Assembly (NCBI GenBank): GCA_017556765.1
Contig: JAFYME010000054.1
Span: 1 to 41,119 of the forward strand
DNA: 41,119 nucleotides
Reading direction: 5' to 3'
Source: Bacteroidales bacterium
GTDB lineage: Bacteria; Bacteroidota; Bacteroidia; Bacteroidales; UBA932
The notes under the pieces were generated by a model, which did no database searches, was not told the DNA's origin, and saw only the letters and a program-made list of their open reading frames with translations. Each line of letters opens with the position of its first letter. The first letter of the stretch is position 1. Both the position numbers and the translations under genes were made by a program. Positions 17,180 to 23,468 of this stretch are shown here, piece after piece.

Positions 17180-18370
17180 TTACCGCAACCAAGTTTCAGG
17201 GTTCTGCGGATCTTTGCCTTTCCAAACCTCGAAATGGAGCTGGGTCTGTCCGTTTATCGTATCGATATCTCCGATAAGCTGTCCTGTCTTGACCTTGTCG
17301 CCGGCCTTTACGGCAATGTTCTTCATCTTGCAGTAAAGCGTAAAATAGTTTCCATGCTGCACGAGCACGCACTGATTGTATCCCGGCATGACCAGAACCT
17401 GCGAAACTACTCCGTCAAAGACGGCCTTCACATGCTCACCCTTTGCCAGAGCTATATCCACACCGTTGTTCGGCGGAAGCTCTAGATTCTTGTATACAGG
17501 ATGATAATGCTTTCCGAAACGGCTGACCACAGGACCGTCCGCAGGCCATGGGAGCTTGCCCTTGTTCTTTGAAAACTCCGCATCCAGCTTCATGTCTACC
17601 GGTGCCTTCGGCTTCTTGCTTCCGGTCTTCTGACCATCTTTATTCATGGCGTTTGCAATCAGACGCTCGATCTCACGGTTCAAGGCATTGATCTCCTTCT
17701 TCTTCGACGCAAGCTGGCTCTGATACTTCTTCCTGTCCTTCTGAAGCTTCTTGACCACGCTGTCTGCCTTGCTTTCGTCCTTTCTCAGATTGTCCAATTC
17801 CTTCTGCCTCTCGGCCTTTACGGCCTCGGCATCCTTCTTCAGAAGCGCAAGCCTTTCCTGCTTCAAGGCCAGTTCATCCTGCATTGTGCGGATGCTCTTC
17901 GCCTCGTTCTTCATCTGGGTCGAGAGATTGCGGAAATATCCGAAACGGCGGAAGGCCTGACCGAGATTGTCGCTCGCGAACATGTACATGTACCATATAC
18001 GCGAATCCCTGTTCTTATATGCGCTGAGAACCAGCTTCGAATAATGCGCAGTCAGGGTATCCACCCTTGCCTGAAGCCTGTTTATCTCCTTCTGAGCCAG
18101 ATAGATGCTGTCAGAATATTGACGGATCACACGGTCGGACTCCGAAACGAGAGCCTTTCTGTTCGATATCTTCTTGCGGATGAGGCTGAGGTCGGTCAGC
18201 ATGGAGCTGCTCTGCGAAGCATTCTCCGCCAGCTGCTTGTCGATGATGGCTATTTCCCTCTCCAGACGCGCCTTCTTCTCCTCCTGAGCCCTTGTATCCT
18301 GCGCAGATGCCGCCATCGAGACCGACAGCAGCACCACTACCATATATATGTATCTGAGTATTCTGTACAT
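17180..18370 (-). CDS. EnvC-like murein hydrolase activator (coiled coil + degenerate LytM)
   Basis: 396 aa, signal peptide to AASAQ (about 24), then a long coiled coil (about 28-240, rich in Lys/Glu/Leu heptads) and a C-terminal M23/LytM fold (about 275-396). The zinc ligands of active M23 peptidases are missing: the HxGxD motif reads NNGVD (Asn301 in place of His) and HxH reads QLH (Gln377 in place of His). As in EnvC, it should therefore activate a cell-wall amidase rather than cut peptidoglycan itself. Its gene is 6 nt downstream of the TPR protein gene and probably co-transcribed. My recollection is that in many Bacteroidota a DUF4292 lipoprotein gene lies between these two; none is present here. 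Confidence 0.88.
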   Translation of the reverse strand: MYRILRYIYMVVVLLSVSMAASAQDTRAQEEKKARLEREIAIIDKQLAENASQSSSMLTDLSLIRKKISNRKALVSESDRVIRQYSDSIYLAQKEINRLQARVDTLTAHYSKLVLSAYKNRDSRIWYMYMFASDNLGQAFRRFGYFRNLSTQMKNEAKSIRTMQDELALKQERLALLKKDAEAVKAERQKELDNLRKDESKADSVVKKLQKDRKKYQSQLASKKKEINALNREIERLIANAMNKDGQKTGSKKPKAPVDMKLDAEFSKNKGKLPWPADGPVVSRFGKHYHPVYKNLELPPNNGVDIALAKGEHVKAVFDGVVSQVLVMPGYNQCVLVQHGNYFTLYCKMKNIAVKAGDKVKTGQLIGDIDTINGQTQLHFEVWKGKDPQNPETWLR

Positions 18371-18376
18371 CAGCGG

Positions 18377-20092
18377 TTATTTCTTCATTTCCTGACGGCG
18401 CTGCTTCACCTTCTCTTCCAGCCCCTCTATTTCCCCCTTGTTCTTCTGGAGCGCCAGGTTCCAGTACACCAATGCAAGGTCATATTCCTTCAATACAAAA
18501 AGTACCTCGGCATAATGGTCCATTATCACGACGCTGTCCTTTCCTCCGTAGAGCATCGCATGCTTGAAGAACGGCTTCGCCTCAAGGGCCTTGCCCTGCA
18601 GATAGAGGATCCATCCGAATGTATCGAGGTATGTCGCATTGTCCGGCTCGGCCTCTATTGCCTTCTTGCTCATGCTGTAGGCCTTCTTCAGCTTCTTCCC
18701 CTCTACGCTGAGGTAGTATGCATAATTGTTAAGGACATATACATAGTCCGGATTTATCTTCAGAGCCTTGTCGTATGCCTTGTACGCCTTCTTGTCGTCG
18801 CCGAGCTGATGGTAGATATCTCCCATAGTCGACCATGCCCTCAATGTCTTCGAACTGTCACGCGGAGCGACCTCCAGCACCTTCTGGCAGAGGTCCAGCA
18901 CCTTGTCATATTCCTCAAGGTTGTAATCTCCCATGCTAGCCATCTCCAGGAAGGCGGTCTCCTTCGGGAAGCGTTCGAACGCCTTTCGGCCTTCCCTCGA
19001 AAGATCCTCCCACTCCTGAGCGTACATCAGGAACTCCACATATGTCGCAGCCGCGGCAAAGCTCTCCGGCCACGCCTCAAGATTTGCCTTGAAATGCTTC
19101 TTTGCCTGGTCCATACGGTCTGTCGAATAGTAGTAAACCGCTGCAGCATGTAAAAGTATGCTATCCTTTGGATGCACCTTCAGGACTTTGTTCATCACGG
19201 TATCCAGCTGAGGCTGGAATGTGCTGACGAACTTCGGATCCGTCCTCTGCACTACAGCCATGAGATAGTCTCCCTTCGCGCCGGCCGGAGTATCCTCCGT
19301 CACAATGTACTTGTCCAGGACATTGAAATACTCCTCATATCTCCTTGTCATCCTGAGAGCTTCAGCCTTGCCCAGAAGGGCCGGAGAATAGTCCGGAGCC
19401 AGCTCCAGAGCTTCGTCGTAATATGCCAGCGCAGTCGAATCATTGTACATGGCCATCTCGTAATCGGCCAATGTCGCCAGAATGAACGGAGACGAATATT
19501 CCTTATTATAGTCCTGTAGCGACTGGAAGGCCTCTTCCTGCCTGTTAAGCATACGCAGAAGGTTGAACCTGTAGACGGCTATGGACTCGGTCATGCCGAA
19601 GACGGTCTCGATCTCCTTCAATGTCTCCAGAGCCTTATCGTATTCCTGCTGAGAGCCATAAAGCTCCACGAGGTCGAAATAAAGGTCGCTCTTCTTCGGG
19701 AAATCCTCCAGGAGCTTTTCATACATGTCTACAGTAAGCTCCGCTCTTGATGTGACCGCATACAGCCTTGCCAACCTGTACCTGTACCAGAAATTAGACG
19801 GATCTATCTCTGACGCCATCCTGTAGCACTGCTCTGCAGTCTCAGGGTCGTTCTTTGCTATCGCGCACTGTCCCAGATAATACCATGCGCCGTCATTCTG
19901 AGGGTCATCGGCAACGACTTCCTTGAGGATCGAAACCGCGGAGTCGATGTCCCTTTCATTATATCTCGCCACGGCGGAAAGCACCATGTTCTCATGCCTT
20001 GCCTCAGCCCTCTCCTTCTGCGCATGCGCAGGCATTGAAAAGAAAGACAGGAAGACACATGCGGCCAACGCCATATATAAAAACTTCTTCAT
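18377..20092 (-). CDS. Secreted tetratricopeptide-repeat protein
   Basis: 571 aa from the ATG at 20092, which begins a good signal peptide (MKKFLYMALAACVFLSFF, cleavage after PAHAQ). A longer frame from 20290 adds 66 non-signal residues that run into the divergent promoter region and was rejected. Tandem TPR helices occupy most of the protein, e.g. DGAWYYLGQCAIAKNDPETA, the KTLRAWSTMGDIYHQLG region, and NPDYVYVLNNYAYYLSVEG. TPR arrays bind partner proteins; the partner is probably in the envelope, given the signal peptide and the co-transcribed EnvC-like gene. It is divergent from the ECF sigma gene. Confidence 0.88.
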   Translation of the reverse strand: MKKFLYMALAACVFLSFFSMPAHAQKERAEARHENMVLSAVARYNERDIDSAVSILKEVVADDPQNDGAWYYLGQCAIAKNDPETAEQCYRMASEIDPSNFWYRYRLARLYAVTSRAELTVDMYEKLLEDFPKKSDLYFDLVELYGSQQEYDKALETLKEIETVFGMTESIAVYRFNLLRMLNRQEEAFQSLQDYNKEYSSPFILATLADYEMAMYNDSTALAYYDEALELAPDYSPALLGKAEALRMTRRYEEYFNVLDKYIVTEDTPAGAKGDYLMAVVQRTDPKFVSTFQPQLDTVMNKVLKVHPKDSILLHAAAVYYYSTDRMDQAKKHFKANLEAWPESFAAAATYVEFLMYAQEWEDLSREGRKAFERFPKETAFLEMASMGDYNLEEYDKVLDLCQKVLEVAPRDSSKTLRAWSTMGDIYHQLGDDKKAYKAYDKALKINPDYVYVLNNYAYYLSVEGKKLKKAYSMSKKAIEAEPDNATYLDTFGWILYLQGKALEAKPFFKHAMLYGGKDSVVIMDHYAEVLFVLKEYDLALVYWNLALQKNKGEIEGLEEKVKQRRQEMKK

Positions 20093-20115: not shown

Positions 20116-20123
20116 CAAAAATA
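20116..20123 (-). promoter_or_regulatory. Candidate -7 box for the TPR-envC operon
   Basis: Minus-strand TATTTTTG matches TAnnTTTG and predicts a leader of about 20 nt to the ATG at 20092. It also falls inside the longer frame of the TPR gene, supporting the shorter start. No clear -33 box. Confidence 0.45.
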
Positions 20124-20154: not shown

Positions 20155-20235
20155 GAAAAAATGTGCTCGGCATGCAACATTCACGGCCCCTTTTGCATCT
20201 ATATAGCGCATGAACAATTAACGACCTTTGGGGCC

Positions 20236-20249: not shown

Positions 20250-20792
20250 GTGGCAGAGAACTTTGATCTACAGCTGATTGAATCATGCATAAAAGGAGAT
20301 CGCGCGTCCCAGAAGGTTGTTTACGACCGTCTGGCTTCCCGTATGCTCCCTTTATGCATGCGTTATGCTGGGGATAATGAGCAGGCCATGGACATACTCC
20401 AGGACGGGTTCGTGACATTGTTCACGCAGCTCAAGCAATATAAGGGAGACGGCTCCTTTGAAGGATGGGCGAGAAAGATCTTTGTAAATACTGCACTTAT
20501 GAGTCTTCGAAAGAAGGATGCGCTGAAGATGAGCGAAGATCTGGACACGATCAGAGGAATGAAGGCGGACACGCCGAGCCAGAGTCAGAACATCGGATAC
20601 AAGGAACTGATGAAGCTGGTGATGCAGCTCCCGGCGGGCTTCAGGACAGTATTCAACCTGAGCGTGCTCGAAGGCTACTCGCACAAGGAGATCGGAGATC
20701 TTCTCGGAATATCCGAGAGCACGTCAAGGACGCAGTTGAGCAGGGCGAGAACATGGTTGCAGAACAAGATTAAGGAATTGGAAAATGTTTGA
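20250..20792 (+). CDS. ECF-family RNA polymerase sigma-70 factor
   Basis: 180 aa with a GTG start backed by a good Shine-Dalgarno. Region sigma2 is at about 10-95 (AMDILQDGFVTLFTQL and FEGWARKIFVNTALMSLRKK) and sigma4 at about 120-175 (LPAGFRTVFNLSVLEGYSHK, then the helix-turn-helix IGDLLGISESTSRTQLSRAR). The two-domain size is typical of ECF factors. Its stop overlaps the start of the next gene by 8 nt, so the two are translationally linked, the usual arrangement for an ECF factor and its regulator. Target promoters cannot be read from the window. Confidence 0.94.
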   Translation: MAENFDLQLIESCIKGDRASQKVVYDRLASRMLPLCMRYAGDNEQAMDILQDGFVTLFTQLKQYKGDGSFEGWARKIFVNTALMSLRKKDALKMSEDLDTIRGMKADTPSQSQNIGYKELMKLVMQLPAGFRTVFNLSVLEGYSHKEIGDLLGISESTSRTQLSRARTWLQNKIKELENV

Positions 20793-21984
20793 AGATAAAA
20801 ACATAAATGAATTTGATCAGATGATGAAGTCCATCCTGGATGAAGGCAGGGAAGAAGTTCCTGCAAGCGTCTGGGAGGGGGTTTCCGCTGGTCTGGACAA
20901 AGCCGAAAAGCACAAGACCGTGGTCTTGTGGTGGAGGCGTGCGGCCGCGGGAGCGGCTGTGGCGGCAGCGGTGGCTGTCGGCGTGATCTTCAATCACACG
21001 CCGCAGCAGGAGCTGGTGCCCCAGGCGGGAGACAGCGGCATGATCGCCGTTGCTGAGCCTGCAGATGAGATCGTGACAGAAGAGACTGAAATCGTCATTC
21101 CGGACATGATCGCGGAAGCGGAACCGGTCGTGAAGCCGGTAAGGAATGCAGTAATAAAGACTGCTGACGAGGCAATCGAGGTTGTCACAGACGTGGCTAC
21201 GGCTGATGAAATCCCTGCTGATGTGGTTCCTGCCGATAAGGCTCCGGCTGATGAAGCTCCAGCTGATGAGAAAAAAGTTGAGACCAAGAAGGAATATTTC
21301 CCTGAAGACTGGGGCGAGGAGACTCCTGAGAGAAAGGCTGACGTCTCGCTCGTGCTTTCGGGACTGGCCAGCACAAATGACGCTCAGAGTCAGAACCGTA
21401 TGGGTCCGATGAAAGCTCCATCTGTGAATCCGGCGCCTAAGAAGACCGGCATCACAGAGACCAGCACAAAGTCAACATACGGAATCCCCGTATCCTTCGG
21501 AGCAGGAGTCAAGGTAGACTTCAATGAAAGATGGTCGCTGGGAGTCGGAGCAAACTACACTCTTCTGGCCAGAAAATTCTATGGTAAATATACAAAGGTC
21601 ACCGAGGCCGGAGGAATAGAAAATTCAATATCTTCCGATATCCGCAACACACAGCACTTCGTCGGCATCCCGGTAAATGCATATTACAACATCATAAGCA
21701 AAGACAGGATAAACCTTTACGCATACGCCGGAGGAACTGTAGAGAAATGTGTATCAGATAATTACAATGTTCTGGGCACATCTATCTACCACAAGGAAAA
21801 GGCTGAGGGTGTACAGCTTTCGGCCGACGCCGGAATAGGTGTGGAATTCATGCTTGGAAAGCACATGGGACTTTATATCGACCCAAGCCTGAGATATTAC
21901 TTCGACTGCGGACAGCCAAAGAGCATCAGGACGGTGCAGCCGCTCATGTTCGGATTTGAGATGGGTTTCAGATTCCGTCTATAA
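20785..21984 (+). CDS. Putative anti-sigma-like protein fused to an outer-membrane beta-barrel
   Basis: 399 aa. Residues 1-50 are soluble and charged, with a motif (EVPASVWEGVSAGLDKAEK) at the position of a sigma-binding tail. A single hydrophobic, Ala-rich segment (about 53-70) is preceded by WWRR, giving an N-in orientation. Residues ~75-225 are an acidic Ala/Pro-rich linker with PAD repeats (PADVVPADKAPADEAPADEK). Residues ~232-399 look like a porin-type 8-strand barrel (alternating aromatic/glycine strands, last strand FEMGFRFRL). No cleavable signal peptide. As translated, one chain would cross the inner membrane, the periplasm and sit in the outer membrane. Genes with this pattern next to ECF sigma factors occur in Bacteroidota, but regulation by this protein is inference. 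The 3' end overlaps the convergent mlaF-like gene by 17 nt. Confidence 0.75.
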   Translation: MFEDKNINEFDQMMKSILDEGREEVPASVWEGVSAGLDKAEKHKTVVLWWRRAAAGAAVAAAVAVGVIFNHTPQQELVPQAGDSGMIAVAEPADEIVTEETEIVIPDMIAEAEPVVKPVRNAVIKTADEAIEVVTDVATADEIPADVVPADKAPADEAPADEKKVETKKEYFPEDWGEETPERKADVSLVLSGLASTNDAQSQNRMGPMKAPSVNPAPKKTGITETSTKSTYGIPVSFGAGVKVDFNERWSLGVGANYTLLARKFYGKYTKVTEAGGIENSISSDIRNTQHFVGIPVNAYYNIISKDRINLYAYAGGTVEKCVSDNYNVLGTSIYHKEKAEGVQLSADAGIGVEFMLGKHMGLYIDPSLRYYFDCGQPKSIRTVQPLMFGFEMGFRFRL

Positions 21985-22720
21985 TGTTCCTGGCCAAAGT
22001 ATTGGCACATACAAAATCCTTCAGTTCCTTGCAATCGGGCTGAAGGATTGTTTTTTTATCCCCCTGCCAGAGCATGGATCCCTGGTGGATGAATCCGATC
22101 TTGTCTCCGATCTCGAGGATGGAATTCATATCGTGCGTATTCACGACAGTCGTCATGTTAAACTCCTTGGTCAGGTCGCTGATGAGACGGTCTATGAGGA
22201 TGGATGTATATGGATCCAGACCGGAATTCGGCTCGTCGCAGAACAGGTATGAAGGATTCAGGGCTATGGCCCTCGCTATACCGACACGCTTCTGCATTCC
22301 TCCGCTGAGTTCGCTGGGATACTTATCGTCCGAACCGATTACATTCACCTTCTCCAGACAGTACTGCGCCCTTTCCCTCATCTGAGCCTTCGACCAGTCT
22401 GTGAAGAATTCCATAGGGAACATCACATTTTCTATGACCGTCGCAAAATCAAAGAGAGCGCTTCCCTGGAAAAGGATTCCTATGTTCTGACGAAGCTTCA
22501 TCTTCTCCTTGTCGGACATCTGCGAGAGCTTCACATCTCCATAGCTTATGTCTCCGCTGTCAGGCTCCATCAGACCTATGAGGTTCTTCAGCAGCACTGT
22601 CTTACCAGAACCGCTGGCTCCTATGATCATGTTGCACTTGCCCTGCTCGTATTCCACATTTATGTTCTTCAGGACCTGCACCCCGTCGAAGCTCTTGTTC
22701 AGATTCTCTACCTTGATCAT
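21968..22720 (-). CDS. mlaF: MlaF-like ABC transporter ATPase (phospholipid/lipid transport)
   Basis: 250 aa. Walker A GASGSGKT (34-41), Q-loop in GILFQGSALFD, signature LSGGMQKR, Walker B YLFCDEPNSGLDP and switch His in NTHDM. The SGLDP and ELSGGMQKRVGIARA wording is typical of the Mla/Mce-associated ATPases. Start is 1 nt after the stop of the permease gene, so the two form an operon and a complex at the inner membrane moving phospholipid between membranes. The substrate-binding MlaD (MCE) subunit usually encoded next to them is not adjacent. The 3' end overlaps the convergent barrel gene by 17 nt. Confidence 0.92.
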   Translation of the reverse strand: MIKVENLNKSFDGVQVLKNINVEYEQGKCNMIIGASGSGKTVLLKNLIGLMEPDSGDISYGDVKLSQMSDKEKMKLRQNIGILFQGSALFDFATVIENVMFPMEFFTDWSKAQMRERAQYCLEKVNVIGSDDKYPSELSGGMQKRVGIARAIALNPSYLFCDEPNSGLDPYTSILIDRLISDLTKEFNMTTVVNTHDMNSILEIGDKIGFIHQGSMLWQGDKKTILQPDCKELKDFVCANTLARNIIDGI

Positions 22721-22721
22721 T

Positions 22722-23468
22722 TTAATAAAGCATTAACTGGGTTACTATCAGGTCGGCCAGAAGAATCAGGATGCTGGTCACGACAATGGCCTTTGTGCTG
22801 GAGCGTCCTACGCCGAGAGAGCCTCCCTTTGCATAGTATCCGTTGAAAGCCGCTATCGAAGATATCATGAAGCAGAAAAGAGACATCTTGAAGCAGCTGT
22901 AGAATATGTAGAAGCCGTTGTAAAAGGCTTTGATTCCCGTAATGTACGATGCTGTAGGGATTATCTGTGTCGTCTCGACGACTACGTATCCTCCGACAAG
23001 GCCGAGAGCCAGACTGAGGAGCATCAGAAGCGGGCTGAGAATCGTTGTGACGGCGATTTTCGGAAGGACAAGGAAGCCTGCCGAATTGACACCCATCATG
23101 TCCATGGCGTCGATCTGCTCGGTAATGCGCATGCTTCCTATCTCAGATGATATGTTCGAGCCCATCTTTCCCGCAAGGATCAGCGCCACCATGGTAGAGC
23201 AGAACTCCAAAATGAGACTCTCCCTTACCATGTATCCTATATACATCTTGTCGATTATGGGATTTTCCAGATTTGACGCAGTCTGGATAACGAGGACTCC
23301 ACCTATGAAAAGAGAGATGACTCCCACCAGAAGTATCGACGATATTATGAGCTTATCTGCTTCTATGACGCACTGCCTCCAGAAGATGCGCCATTTTTCG
23401 GGTCTTCTGAAGACCTTCTTCAAGAACAGAAGGTATCTGCCTGCCGATTCAAAGAAGCTTCTTACCAT
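22722..23468 (-). CDS. mlaE: MlaE-like ABC transporter permease
   Basis: 248 aa with five to six hydrophobic segments. The N-terminal amphipathic region, the conserved LILAGKMGSNISSEIGSMR loop and the EQIDAMDMMGVNS coupling segment are characteristic of the MlaE/YrbE family. It pairs with the downstream ATPase. A 47-residue ORF ends 7 nt upstream, making it the likely first gene of the operon. Confidence 0.93.
   Translation of the reverse strand: MVRSFFESAGRYLLFLKKVFRRPEKWRIFWRQCVIEADKLIISSILLVGVISLFIGGVLVIQTASNLENPIIDKMYIGYMVRESLILEFCSTMVALILAGKMGSNISSEIGSMRITEQIDAMDMMGVNSAGFLVLPKIAVTTILSPLLMLLSLALGLVGGYVVVETTQIIPTASYITGIKAFYNGFYIFYSCFKMSLFCFMISSIAAFNGYYAKGGSLGVGRSSTKAIVVTSILILLADLIVTQLMLY

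What the first reader, a model, noticed from the sequence alone, without database searches (positions are those of the whole stretch)
20250..21984. ECF sigma factor coupled to a putative both-membrane-spanning barrel protein
Seen: the sigma gene overlaps by 8 nt a 399-aa ORF with a soluble N-terminus, one WWRR-preceded hydrophobic helix (53-70), a ~150-residue acidic PAD-repeat linker and a C-terminal porin-like barrel; no cleavable signal. Known: ECF factors are usually followed by a membrane anti-sigma. Inference: this chain could sense the outer membrane directly and hold the sigma factor at the inner membrane, with no separate receptor. The linker is roughly long enough to cross the periplasm if extended. 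The adjacent divergent TPR/EnvC operon is a candidate target.
Basis: partly seen in the sequence, partly recalled or inferred. Interest (0 to 1): 0.7.

Follow-up and report, generated by a model that had tools for sequence, protein, structure and literature searches.

The report
Both-membrane anti-sigma factor with small RNA
This gut-type bacterium carries a known kind of switch, a protein predicted to run from the inside of the cell through both membranes and hold back a gene activator, and comparison with its relatives suggests that the activator also turns on a small RNA not found in the Rfam catalogue, much as outer-membrane stress systems do in E. coli.

Summary
An ECF sigma gene overlaps by 8 nt a 399-aa protein with a soluble N-terminus, one hydrophobic helix, a 156-residue acidic linker and an OMP_b-brl_2 barrel domain. 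[quoted passage not shown] The window sigma falls in a clade apart from the nigD-linked EcfO/BT_4720-type sigmas.

New here: (1) a promoter-like motif, GCARC-N15/16-GCATC, stands before the sigma gene in 38 of 40 sequences, window included; (2) its strict form has five sites in the own genome (reversed control 0): before the sigma gene, a NigD1/NigD2-family lipoprotein (the family EcfO and Das1 control), another lipoprotein, a 204-aa protein, and (3) an unannotated ~60-nt small RNA with a 19-nt core, invariant in 32 sites, and a terminator hairpin. In 31 congeneric genomes RNA and window-type pair occur together in 25, neither in 6, no discordance. The proposed TPR/EnvC target is not supported: its strand carries a housekeeping-type element.

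Likely a sigma-E-like outer-membrane stress system with its own sRNA.

The parts
20173..20200 (+). ECF-type promoter-like motif TGCAAC-N16-GCATCT (-35 box 20173-20178, -10 box 20195-20200), 49 nt before the sigma start: probable autoregulation
   Evidence: GCARC-N15/16-GCATC upstream of sigma in 38 of 40 sequences (window + 39 loci; spacer 16 in 36, 15 in 2); the strict form TGCARC-N16-GCATCT in 34 of 40; shuffled sequences 0.055 of 40
20250..20792 (+). ECF sigma factor, 180 aa
   Evidence: Pfam Sigma70_r2 and r4_2, TIGR02937 over cut-off; tree
20785..21984 (+). Dma/Reo-type anti-sigma protein, 399 aa, overlapping sigma by 8 nt
   Evidence: weak NCBIfam antisigma match to residues 7-100, E 2.8e-4, below its cut-off
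20785..20928 (+). Residues 1-48: cytoplasmic, presumed sigma-binding segment with conserved Trp30
   Evidence: W30 nearly invariant in 41 sequences and in 93% of a wider alignment; binding not tested; residues 1-51 alone match no NCBIfam model
20941..20997 (+). Residues 53-71: single inner-membrane helix
   Evidence: Hydropathy; similar place in relatives
20995..21462 (+). Residues 71-226: acidic, Pro/Ala-rich tether
   Evidence: 33 D/E, 14 K/R, 16 P; poorly conserved in sequence, 122-225 residues long in relatives
21463..21981 (+). Residues 227-399: outer-membrane beta-barrel domain
   Evidence: PF13568 and PF13505 over cut-off; the invariant residues lie here
20116..20123 (-). TAnnTTTG element (TATTTTTG) of the divergent TPR operon: housekeeping-type promoter, against control by this sigma
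   Evidence: Present on the TPR strand in 15 of 15 genus sequences; consensus of sigma-ABfr as stated in PMC7366714 (passage)
18377..20092 (-). TPR protein, divergent neighbour (linked, not a supported target)
   Evidence: Divergent neighbour in 32 of 39 family loci
17180..18370 (-). EnvC-like M23 peptidase, second gene of the divergent operon
   Evidence: Peptidase_M23 E 1.4e-22; linked as above

Best explanation
The pair is an outer-membrane stress switch of the Dma/Reo kind, from a separate branch of that family. The 399-aa protein starts in the cytoplasm, where residues 1-48 hold the sigma factor, crosses the inner membrane once, spans the periplasm with its tether and ends as a barrel in the outer membrane. 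When the outer membrane or barrel folding is disturbed, the protein lets go of the sigma factor. Freed sigma reads TGCARC-N16-GCATCT promoters: its own operon, a NigD1/NigD2-type lipoprotein, other exported proteins, and a ~60-nt small RNA with a 19-nt conserved 5' segment, which most likely base-pairs with envelope mRNAs to lower their output, in the manner of the sigma-E-dependent sRNAs of enterobacteria. Shown by sequence: layout, fixed pairing, motif, its sites, the sRNA gene and its co-occurrence with the pair. Inferred: topology, sigma binding, that this sigma reads the motif, the signal, and the action of the sRNA.
For: Layout in 40 of 40 family loci, barrel model in 40 of 41; sigma upstream in 39 of 39 readable family loci, in 40 of 40 further loci picked from the hits, 39 of them from other families, and in 119 of 120 in a second pass that also took the 80 named loci (exception L244). 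Motif before sigma 38 of 40. Strict motif in 61 genus genomes: 235 matches against 44 for the pattern read backwards; own genome 5 against 0. Own-genome sites lead to NigD1/NigD2 family NF051862 (94.9 bits, cut-off 60; PF17415 E 4.1e-17) and a TIGR04134 lipoprotein (98.5 bits, cut-off 39.8). nigD genes are controlled by EcfO-Reo in P. vulgatus and by Das1-Dma1 in B. thetaiotaomicron. Genes behind motif sites look exported in 21 of 30 against 42 of 166 other genes, p 4e-6. sRNA: 26-nt pattern with up to 3 mismatches in 34 of 249 family genomes, one each, control 0; 32 distinct sites share 19 invariant nt; the exact motif lies upstream in 28 of 32 and with one mismatch in the other 4 (three of the 32 had first been found through the motif); hairpin of -12 kcal/mol or better in 32 of 32, with a T-run in 31. 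Pair and sRNA: 25 genomes both, 6 neither, 0 discordant; 12 of the 31 were looked up for the pair after the sRNA result.
Against: No structure model, no expression data, no target mRNA: the exact complement of 13 nt of the core occurs in 21 genomes only at the sRNA gene itself. The window sigma lies outside the clade of the studied nigD-linked pairs, so their behaviour is carried over by analogy. The looser motif GCARC-N16-GCATC gives 22 own-genome matches against 11 reversed, so only the strict form discriminates. Outside the window's family the strict motif is rare: 12 of 119 sigma-upstream regions, others only with changed letters or not at all. Of 79 sites examined, 23 fall inside ORFs and 26 have no gene within 200 nt by a crude caller; five lpxD-linked sites lie in a divergent coding sequence. 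The E<=1e-30 line between window-type pair and paralog was set after seeing the data (nearest values 5.5e-33 and 7.6e-16), and co-occurrence is not corrected for kinship of the genomes.
Confidence: 0.7

Rival explanations
1. The motif is read by another regulator, for example one of the genome's other sigma factors (two sigma-helix-barrel fusions, P0001 and P0002) or a DNA-binding protein using TGCA-centred half-sites; the window sigma is merely one of its targets.
For: TGCA..TGCA boxes form an imperfect inverted repeat; paralogous sigma factors exist in the same genome.
Against: Fixed 16-nt spacing and AAC/ATCT cores suit an ECF promoter (recalled rule). The motif was not found in the 220-400 nt looked at upstream of the own fusions, L072 and L222; before one fusion stands only a look-alike with a 14-nt spacer. 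Nine of 61 genus genomes have no strict site; the five of them that were tested (G420, G421, G435, G437, G444) all lack the window-type pair.
Confidence: 0.15
2. No single chain spans the envelope: the protein is cut, its barrel goes to the outer membrane (or stays periplasmic) and the N-terminal part is an ordinary inner-membrane anti-sigma factor.
For: No structure or fractionation here; linkers vary widely (122-225 residues) and are poorly conserved.
Against: Helix, linker and barrel stay in one chain in all 40 family loci and in relatives across the order; published work describes relatives as spanning both membranes.
Confidence: 0.12
3. One reading: the divergent TPR/EnvC operon is the main target of the sigma factor.
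For: Divergent linkage in 32 of 39 family loci.
Against: TAnnTTTG on the TPR strand in 15 of 15; sigma-type motif on that strand in 1 of 40 (L035) under a loose pattern; no TPR/EnvC neighbour in 40 other loci, 39 of them from other families, several truncated.
Confidence: 0.07
4. The 'sRNA' is a cis-acting leader or a tiny coding gene, not a trans-acting RNA.
For: In five genomes an M6-peptidase-like ORF lies 70-180 nt behind the motif with the RNA in between.
Against: What follows differs between genomes (by eye); a terminator-like hairpin stands directly behind the core in 32 of 32; all 19 core positions are invariant in 32 sites, whatever the reading frame.
Confidence: 0.12

Closest known systems
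Dma1/Das1 and Dma2/Das2 of Bacteroides thetaiotaomicron (Pardue et al. 2024, not held; Pardue et al. 2026, PMC13088901: abstract, sections 3, 5, 11, part 1 of 30, and passages read)
   Same: N-terminal sigma-binding part, one membrane helix, long disordered tether, C-terminal barrel, cognate ECF sigma gene next door; Das1 raises nigD1.
   Different: Window sigma falls in another clade than the nigD-linked Bacteroides sigmas; its neighbours are TPR/EnvC and Mla-like genes; it goes with its own motif and an sRNA.
EcfO-Reo of B. fragilis and Phocaeicola vulgatus (PMC9308784, PMC13114119; passages read; the 2013 EcfO paper is not held)
   Same: Barrel-ended anti-sigma predicted to span the periplasm; induced by the toxin BcpT, with cell-envelope stress as the likely signal; nigD genes in the regulon.
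   Different: In 53 named loci nigD is the divergent neighbour and the box is GCAGT-N15-GCATT before sigma in 29 of 53; in the window lineage nigD is unlinked and the box is GCARC-N15/16-GCATC.
Dma3-type fusions (described in PMC13088901)
   Same: Two such fusions, sigma-helix-linker-barrel in one chain, lie in the window's own genome.
   Different: The window pair is two genes.
Sigma-E/RseA with sRNAs MicA, RybB, MicL of enterobacteria (recalled, no call)
   Same: Outer-membrane stress, membrane-held sigma, autoregulation, short sRNA made straight from the sigma promoter.
   Different: Sensing domain is a barrel in the same chain as the anti-sigma part; the sRNA matches no Rfam family.
Rfp11 of Flavobacterium psychrophilum (PMC9723704, passages read)
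   Same: A putative regulatory RNA behind an ECF-type (SM6) promoter in the same phylum.
   Different: Other box (CGT in the -10 region), regulon with type IX secretion genes, no link to a barrel-ended anti-sigma in the passages read.

Membership tests
Dma family (dual-membrane-spanning anti-sigma) | N-terminal anti-sigma domain | tested here: inconclusive
   Soluble ~48 residues with conserved Trp30; NCBIfam antisigma E 2.8e-4 for residues 7-100, below its cut-off, none for residues 1-51 alone; binding untested
Dma family (dual-membrane-spanning anti-sigma) | Single transmembrane helix | tested here: met
   Hydropathy only
Dma family (dual-membrane-spanning anti-sigma) | Long intrinsically disordered tether | tested here: inconclusive
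   156 residues, acidic, Pro-rich, unconserved; disorder itself not computed
Dma family (dual-membrane-spanning anti-sigma) | C-terminal beta-barrel | tested here: met
   PF13568 and PF13505 over cut-off; 40 of 41 aligned members; no structure model
Dma family (dual-membrane-spanning anti-sigma) | Cognate ECF sigma gene adjacent | tested here: met
Dma family (dual-membrane-spanning anti-sigma) | Sigma factor of group ECF21 | not testable with these tools
   No ECF group models at hand
Dma family (dual-membrane-spanning anti-sigma) | Homology to Bacteroides Reo/Dma1-type proteins | tested here: met
   Profile of 40 window-family proteins finds the nigD-linked B. faecis protein (L248) at E 2.5e-70
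EcfO-Reo / Das1-Dma1 ortholog | Sigma in the same clade | tested here: not met
   Window in a 54-row clade (100/99) that excludes the 12-row Bacteroidaceae clade with divergent nigD; the tree is midpoint-rooted and rough
EcfO-Reo / Das1-Dma1 ortholog | nigD gene next to the pair | tested here: not met
   Neighbours are TPR/EnvC and Mla-like genes
EcfO-Reo / Das1-Dma1 ortholog | nigD gene in the regulon | tested here: inconclusive
   NigD1/NigD2-family gene 25 nt behind the motif in the own genome, and a homolog behind the motif in three other genus genomes; regulation untested
Sigma-E-type stress sRNA (works-like) | Gene starts at the stress sigma's promoter and ends in an intrinsic terminator | tested here: met
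   sequence only, no transcript data
Sigma-E-type stress sRNA (works-like) | Pairs with outer-membrane protein mRNAs | tested here: inconclusive
   No exact 13-nt complement outside the sRNA gene in 21 genomes; weaker pairing not searched
Known Rfam family | Match of the sRNA loci to an Rfam 15 model | tested here: not met
   L322, L340, L395: one match, below its gathering score and not at the sRNA

The most novel reading that the evidence does not exclude
A Bacteroidales outer-membrane stress system in which one protein senses the outer membrane and holds the sigma factor, and in which that sigma makes a dedicated, conserved small RNA: a sigma-E/MicA-like circuit that arose with a different sensor and a different RNA, in a lineage from which the papers searched here report no such RNA.
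Probability: 0.65. Interest if true: 0.75.

Novelty: new variant of a known kind. Interest (0 to 1): 0.6.

Why it matters
Dma-type switches are known from a few Bacteroides, but which promoters their sigma factors read, how far the regulon is shared and what they sense are open. This analysis gives a testable promoter for a large unstudied branch of the family, ties that branch to NigD lipoproteins like those known from EcfO and Das1 although the gene pairs do not look like orthologs, and adds a small RNA that comes and goes with the pair. If the RNA acts on envelope mRNAs, post-transcriptional control of outer-membrane stress, best known from enterobacteria, would have a counterpart in Bacteroidota that can be tested gene by gene.

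Tried and rejected
Solved-structure search with A1: eight matches, the best at E 0.14, nothing to build on. TPR/EnvC as target: rejected on promoter evidence. lpxD as a target (5 motif sites 135-185 nt upstream): rejected, the sites lie in the conserved start of a divergent coding sequence that I take, from memory, to be rimP. Two sites before ORFs that look, from memory, like apolipoprotein N-acyltransferase: rejected as intragenic. M6 peptidases as direct targets: in all five the sRNA lies between motif and ORF. L433, an sRNA-core look-alike in another family: rejected, no motif. Orthology with EcfO-Reo: rejected by tree and neighbourhood. Reading the motif as an inverted-repeat operator or RNA hairpin was set lower: by eye, changes in one box are mostly not matched in the other. 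Search for mRNA targets by exact complement: the 15 matches are all sRNA genes. sRNA detection outside the genus is incomplete: the 26-nt pattern missed G005 and G010, which the 20-nt pattern found.

Rows dropped before counts: L068 from sigma counts (contig end); L046 from alignment A2 because of a stop codon, and L048, L052 and L067 as a precaution that later proved needless; other loci were left out of A2 as near-duplicates. Duplicates L363 = L405 and L322 = L408 were dropped from sRNA counts; four of the 34 genomes gave no locus and their sites were not read. Of the 235 genus motif matches 79 were examined; the list is itself cut. Four of the 30 genes stand behind the sRNA (L322, L344, L382, L388); without them the count is 20 of 26.
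Full report
What is there. The window holds an ECF sigma gene (20250-20792, +) that overlaps by 8 nt a 399-aa ORF (20785-21984, +). The ORF has a soluble start, one hydrophobic helix (53-71), a 156-residue acidic linker and a barrel domain (PF13568, E 1.9e-9). A TPR gene and an EnvC-like gene run the other way, and two ORFs that I read as an Mla-like ABC pair follow convergently (the name is recalled, no family search was run on them). All points of the observation hold; the fold could not be predicted.

How general it is. In the window's family 161 of 199 genomes have a relative at E<=1e-10 (85 of 96 good ones; 22 of 25 genera). In 40 loci fetched from that family the layout of helix, linker and barrel is kept, a sigma gene lies upstream in 39 of 39 loci that reach that far, and TPR/EnvC is the divergent neighbour in 32 of 39. 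Of 41 aligned proteins 40 match OMP_b-brl_2. At the level of the order 55 of 198 genomes match; 40 further loci picked from the hits, 39 of them from other families, all have the sigma gene upstream and none has TPR/EnvC, though several are truncated. A second pass over these and the 80 named loci found the sigma gene in 119 of 120. A named genome, Candidatus Cryptobacteroides faecigallinarum, has the same gene order (sigma 68%, TPR 53%, EnvC 60% identical), so the window probably comes from that genus (inference).

Already known. PMC9308784 (2022) describes in P. vulgatus a sigma/anti-sigma pair whose anti-sigma is predicted to span the periplasm with a barrel at its C-terminus, and which responds to the toxin BcpT (passages). 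PMC13114119 (2026) names it EcfO-Reo and says that Reo spans all five compartments (passages). PMC13088901 (2026) describes the Dma family with this four-part layout, and Dma3 as a fusion with its sigma factor. The 2024 paper that named the family is not held.

Where this pair sits. A tree of 91 sigma factors puts the window in a 54-row clade (100/99) that excludes a 12-row Bacteroidaceae clade in which nigD is the divergent neighbour; two rows of the 54 have a NigD gene downstream (L123, L144). In all, 53 named loci have a NigD gene divergent to the sigma gene. I take that Bacteroidaceae clade to be EcfO/BT_4720, because the P. vulgatus nigD, ecfO and reo locus numbers are consecutive, BT_4720/BT_4721 is an ECF sigma/anti-sigma pair (passage of PMC10861873) and NCBIfam lists BT4719 among NigD1/NigD2. 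The window's genus also holds a nigD-linked paralog (L222; L072 by eye). The window's own genome holds two sigma-helix-linker-barrel fusions. The tree is midpoint-rooted and its bootstrap had not fully settled.

The promoter. Upstream of the sigma gene GCARC-N15/16-GCATC occurs in 38 of 40 sequences, against 0.055 of 40 after shuffling; the strict form TGCARC-N16-GCATCT in 34 of 40. L066 shows a one-letter variant by eye, L072 none. In the window it lies at 20173-20200. Outside the family the strict form is found in 12 of 119 loci, with changed letters in many others; the loci with divergent nigD show GCAGT-N15-GCATT instead (29 of 53 before sigma, 12 of 53 before nigD, 0 in shuffled sigma-upstream sequence). 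So branches seem to have their own form of the box. The TPR strand has TAnnTTTG in 15 of 15 genus sequences and a sigma-type box in 1 of 40 under a loose pattern.

The sites. The own genome, 58% complete, has five strict sites and none for the pattern read backwards; the looser GCARC-N16-GCATC gives 22 against 11. In 61 genus genomes the strict pattern gives 235 against 44, and 52 of the 61 have a match. The own sites lead to the sigma gene, a NigD1/NigD2-family lipoprotein, a TIGR04134 lipoprotein, a 204-aa protein without a family match that looks to me like a small outer-membrane protein, and the sRNA. Among 79 sites examined, 11 are the sRNA. Thirty have a clearly called gene behind them, of which 21 look exported by a crude rule, against 42 of 166 other genes in the same stretches (Fisher p 4e-6; families recur between genomes, so the p value is too kind); without four sRNA-linked genes it is 20 of 26. 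Groups that recur by BLAST are unnamed ~200-aa proteins (7), sigma genes (7), TIGR04134-like (6), lpxD (5, artefact), M6 peptidases (5, behind the sRNA), NigD (4), PagL-like (3) and an unnamed lipoprotein-like group (3). Against: 23 sites are inside ORFs by the crude caller and 26 have no called gene within 200 nt.

The small RNA. At one own site no ORF follows. Instead come about 8 nt, then GGTTTAGGTTTTAGTACAC, then a GC-rich hairpin and a T-run; two more genomes showed the same. A 26-nt pattern made from these three, with up to 3 mismatches, is found in 34 of 249 family genomes, once in each, reversed control 0. In 32 distinct sites (30 loci plus L340 and L395) the 19 nt are invariant, although mismatches were allowed anywhere and the hairpin differs in sequence; the hairpin is -12 kcal/mol or better in 32 of 32 (median z -4.4, mononucleotide shuffles), with a T-run in 31 of 32. 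The exact motif precedes 28 of 32 and the other four have one mismatch; of 15 core sites met, 13 have the exact motif (some overlap with the former). Two further genera (L434, L435) show motif, core and, by eye, a hairpin; in L435 the last core letter differs. In 247 genomes across the order the only other hit, L433, lacks the motif. It is not in Rfam (three loci). Neighbouring genes differ between genomes, which speaks for a trans-acting RNA.

The link. In the window's genus, of 31 genomes tested for both, 25 have the window-type pair (E<=1e-30) and the RNA, 6 have neither, none is discordant (p 1.4e-6 without correction for kinship). Twelve of the 31 were tested for the pair only after the RNA result was known, and all twelve agreed. 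Four more genomes without a strict motif site (G420, G421, G435, G437) also lack the window-type pair.

How it likely works. Residues 1-48 hold the sigma factor; the barrel senses the outer membrane; disturbance frees the sigma factor, which amplifies its own operon, makes NigD-type and other envelope proteins, and makes the RNA, which probably trims envelope mRNAs. The signal, the release step (proteolysis or conformational change) and the RNA's targets are inferred. No exact complement of 13 nt of the core exists outside the RNA gene in 21 genomes.

Novelty. The barrel-ended anti-sigma is a known kind. The promoter of this branch, its regulon and above all the sRNA were not found in print: searches of the held library turned up EcfO/Dma papers, BatR and other Bacteroides sRNAs (PMC10861873, passages; PMC7366714, passages), and Rfp11, an RNA behind an ECF-type promoter in Flavobacterium (PMC9723704, passages), but no sRNA tied to a Dma-type pair. 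The library lacks most subscription papers, including the 2013 EcfO paper, which identified an EcfO motif (as stated in PMC7366714).

Noticed in passing
L322 (own genome G000:C15, minus strand, about 880-950), L340, L395, L403-L432: Unannotated ~60-nt small RNA with 19 nucleotides invariant in 32 sites and an intrinsic terminator behind the sigma-type promoter; single copy per genome.
   Followed up: yes
L002 (P0001, 564 aa) and L003 (P0002, 526 aa), own genome C56 and C12: Sigma factor, membrane helix, linker and barrel in one chain; in P0002 the helix follows the sigma part almost at once, with little room for an anti-sigma segment, so release would seem to need cutting.
   Followed up: partly
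L222 / L402 (Cand. Cryptobacteroides faecigallinarum C35) and L072: A second, nigD-linked sigma/barrel pair in the same genus, without the TGCARC-GCATCT box in the stretch looked at.
   Followed up: partly
window 21968-23468, minus strand: Two genes read as Mla-like ABC ATPase and permease end head-on against the barrel gene and stay there in many relatives; meaning of the linkage unknown.
   Followed up: no
L166-L245 named loci with divergent nigD: GCAGT-N15-GCATT box before sigma (29 of 53) and before nigD (12 of 53): a candidate EcfO/Das1 promoter that can be checked against published regulons.
   Followed up: partly
L328, L381, L393: Homologous 444-454-aa proteins (PagL match for L328, E 1.1e-6) directly behind the sigma-type box in three genus genomes: possible lipid A remodelling in the regulon.
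   Followed up: partly
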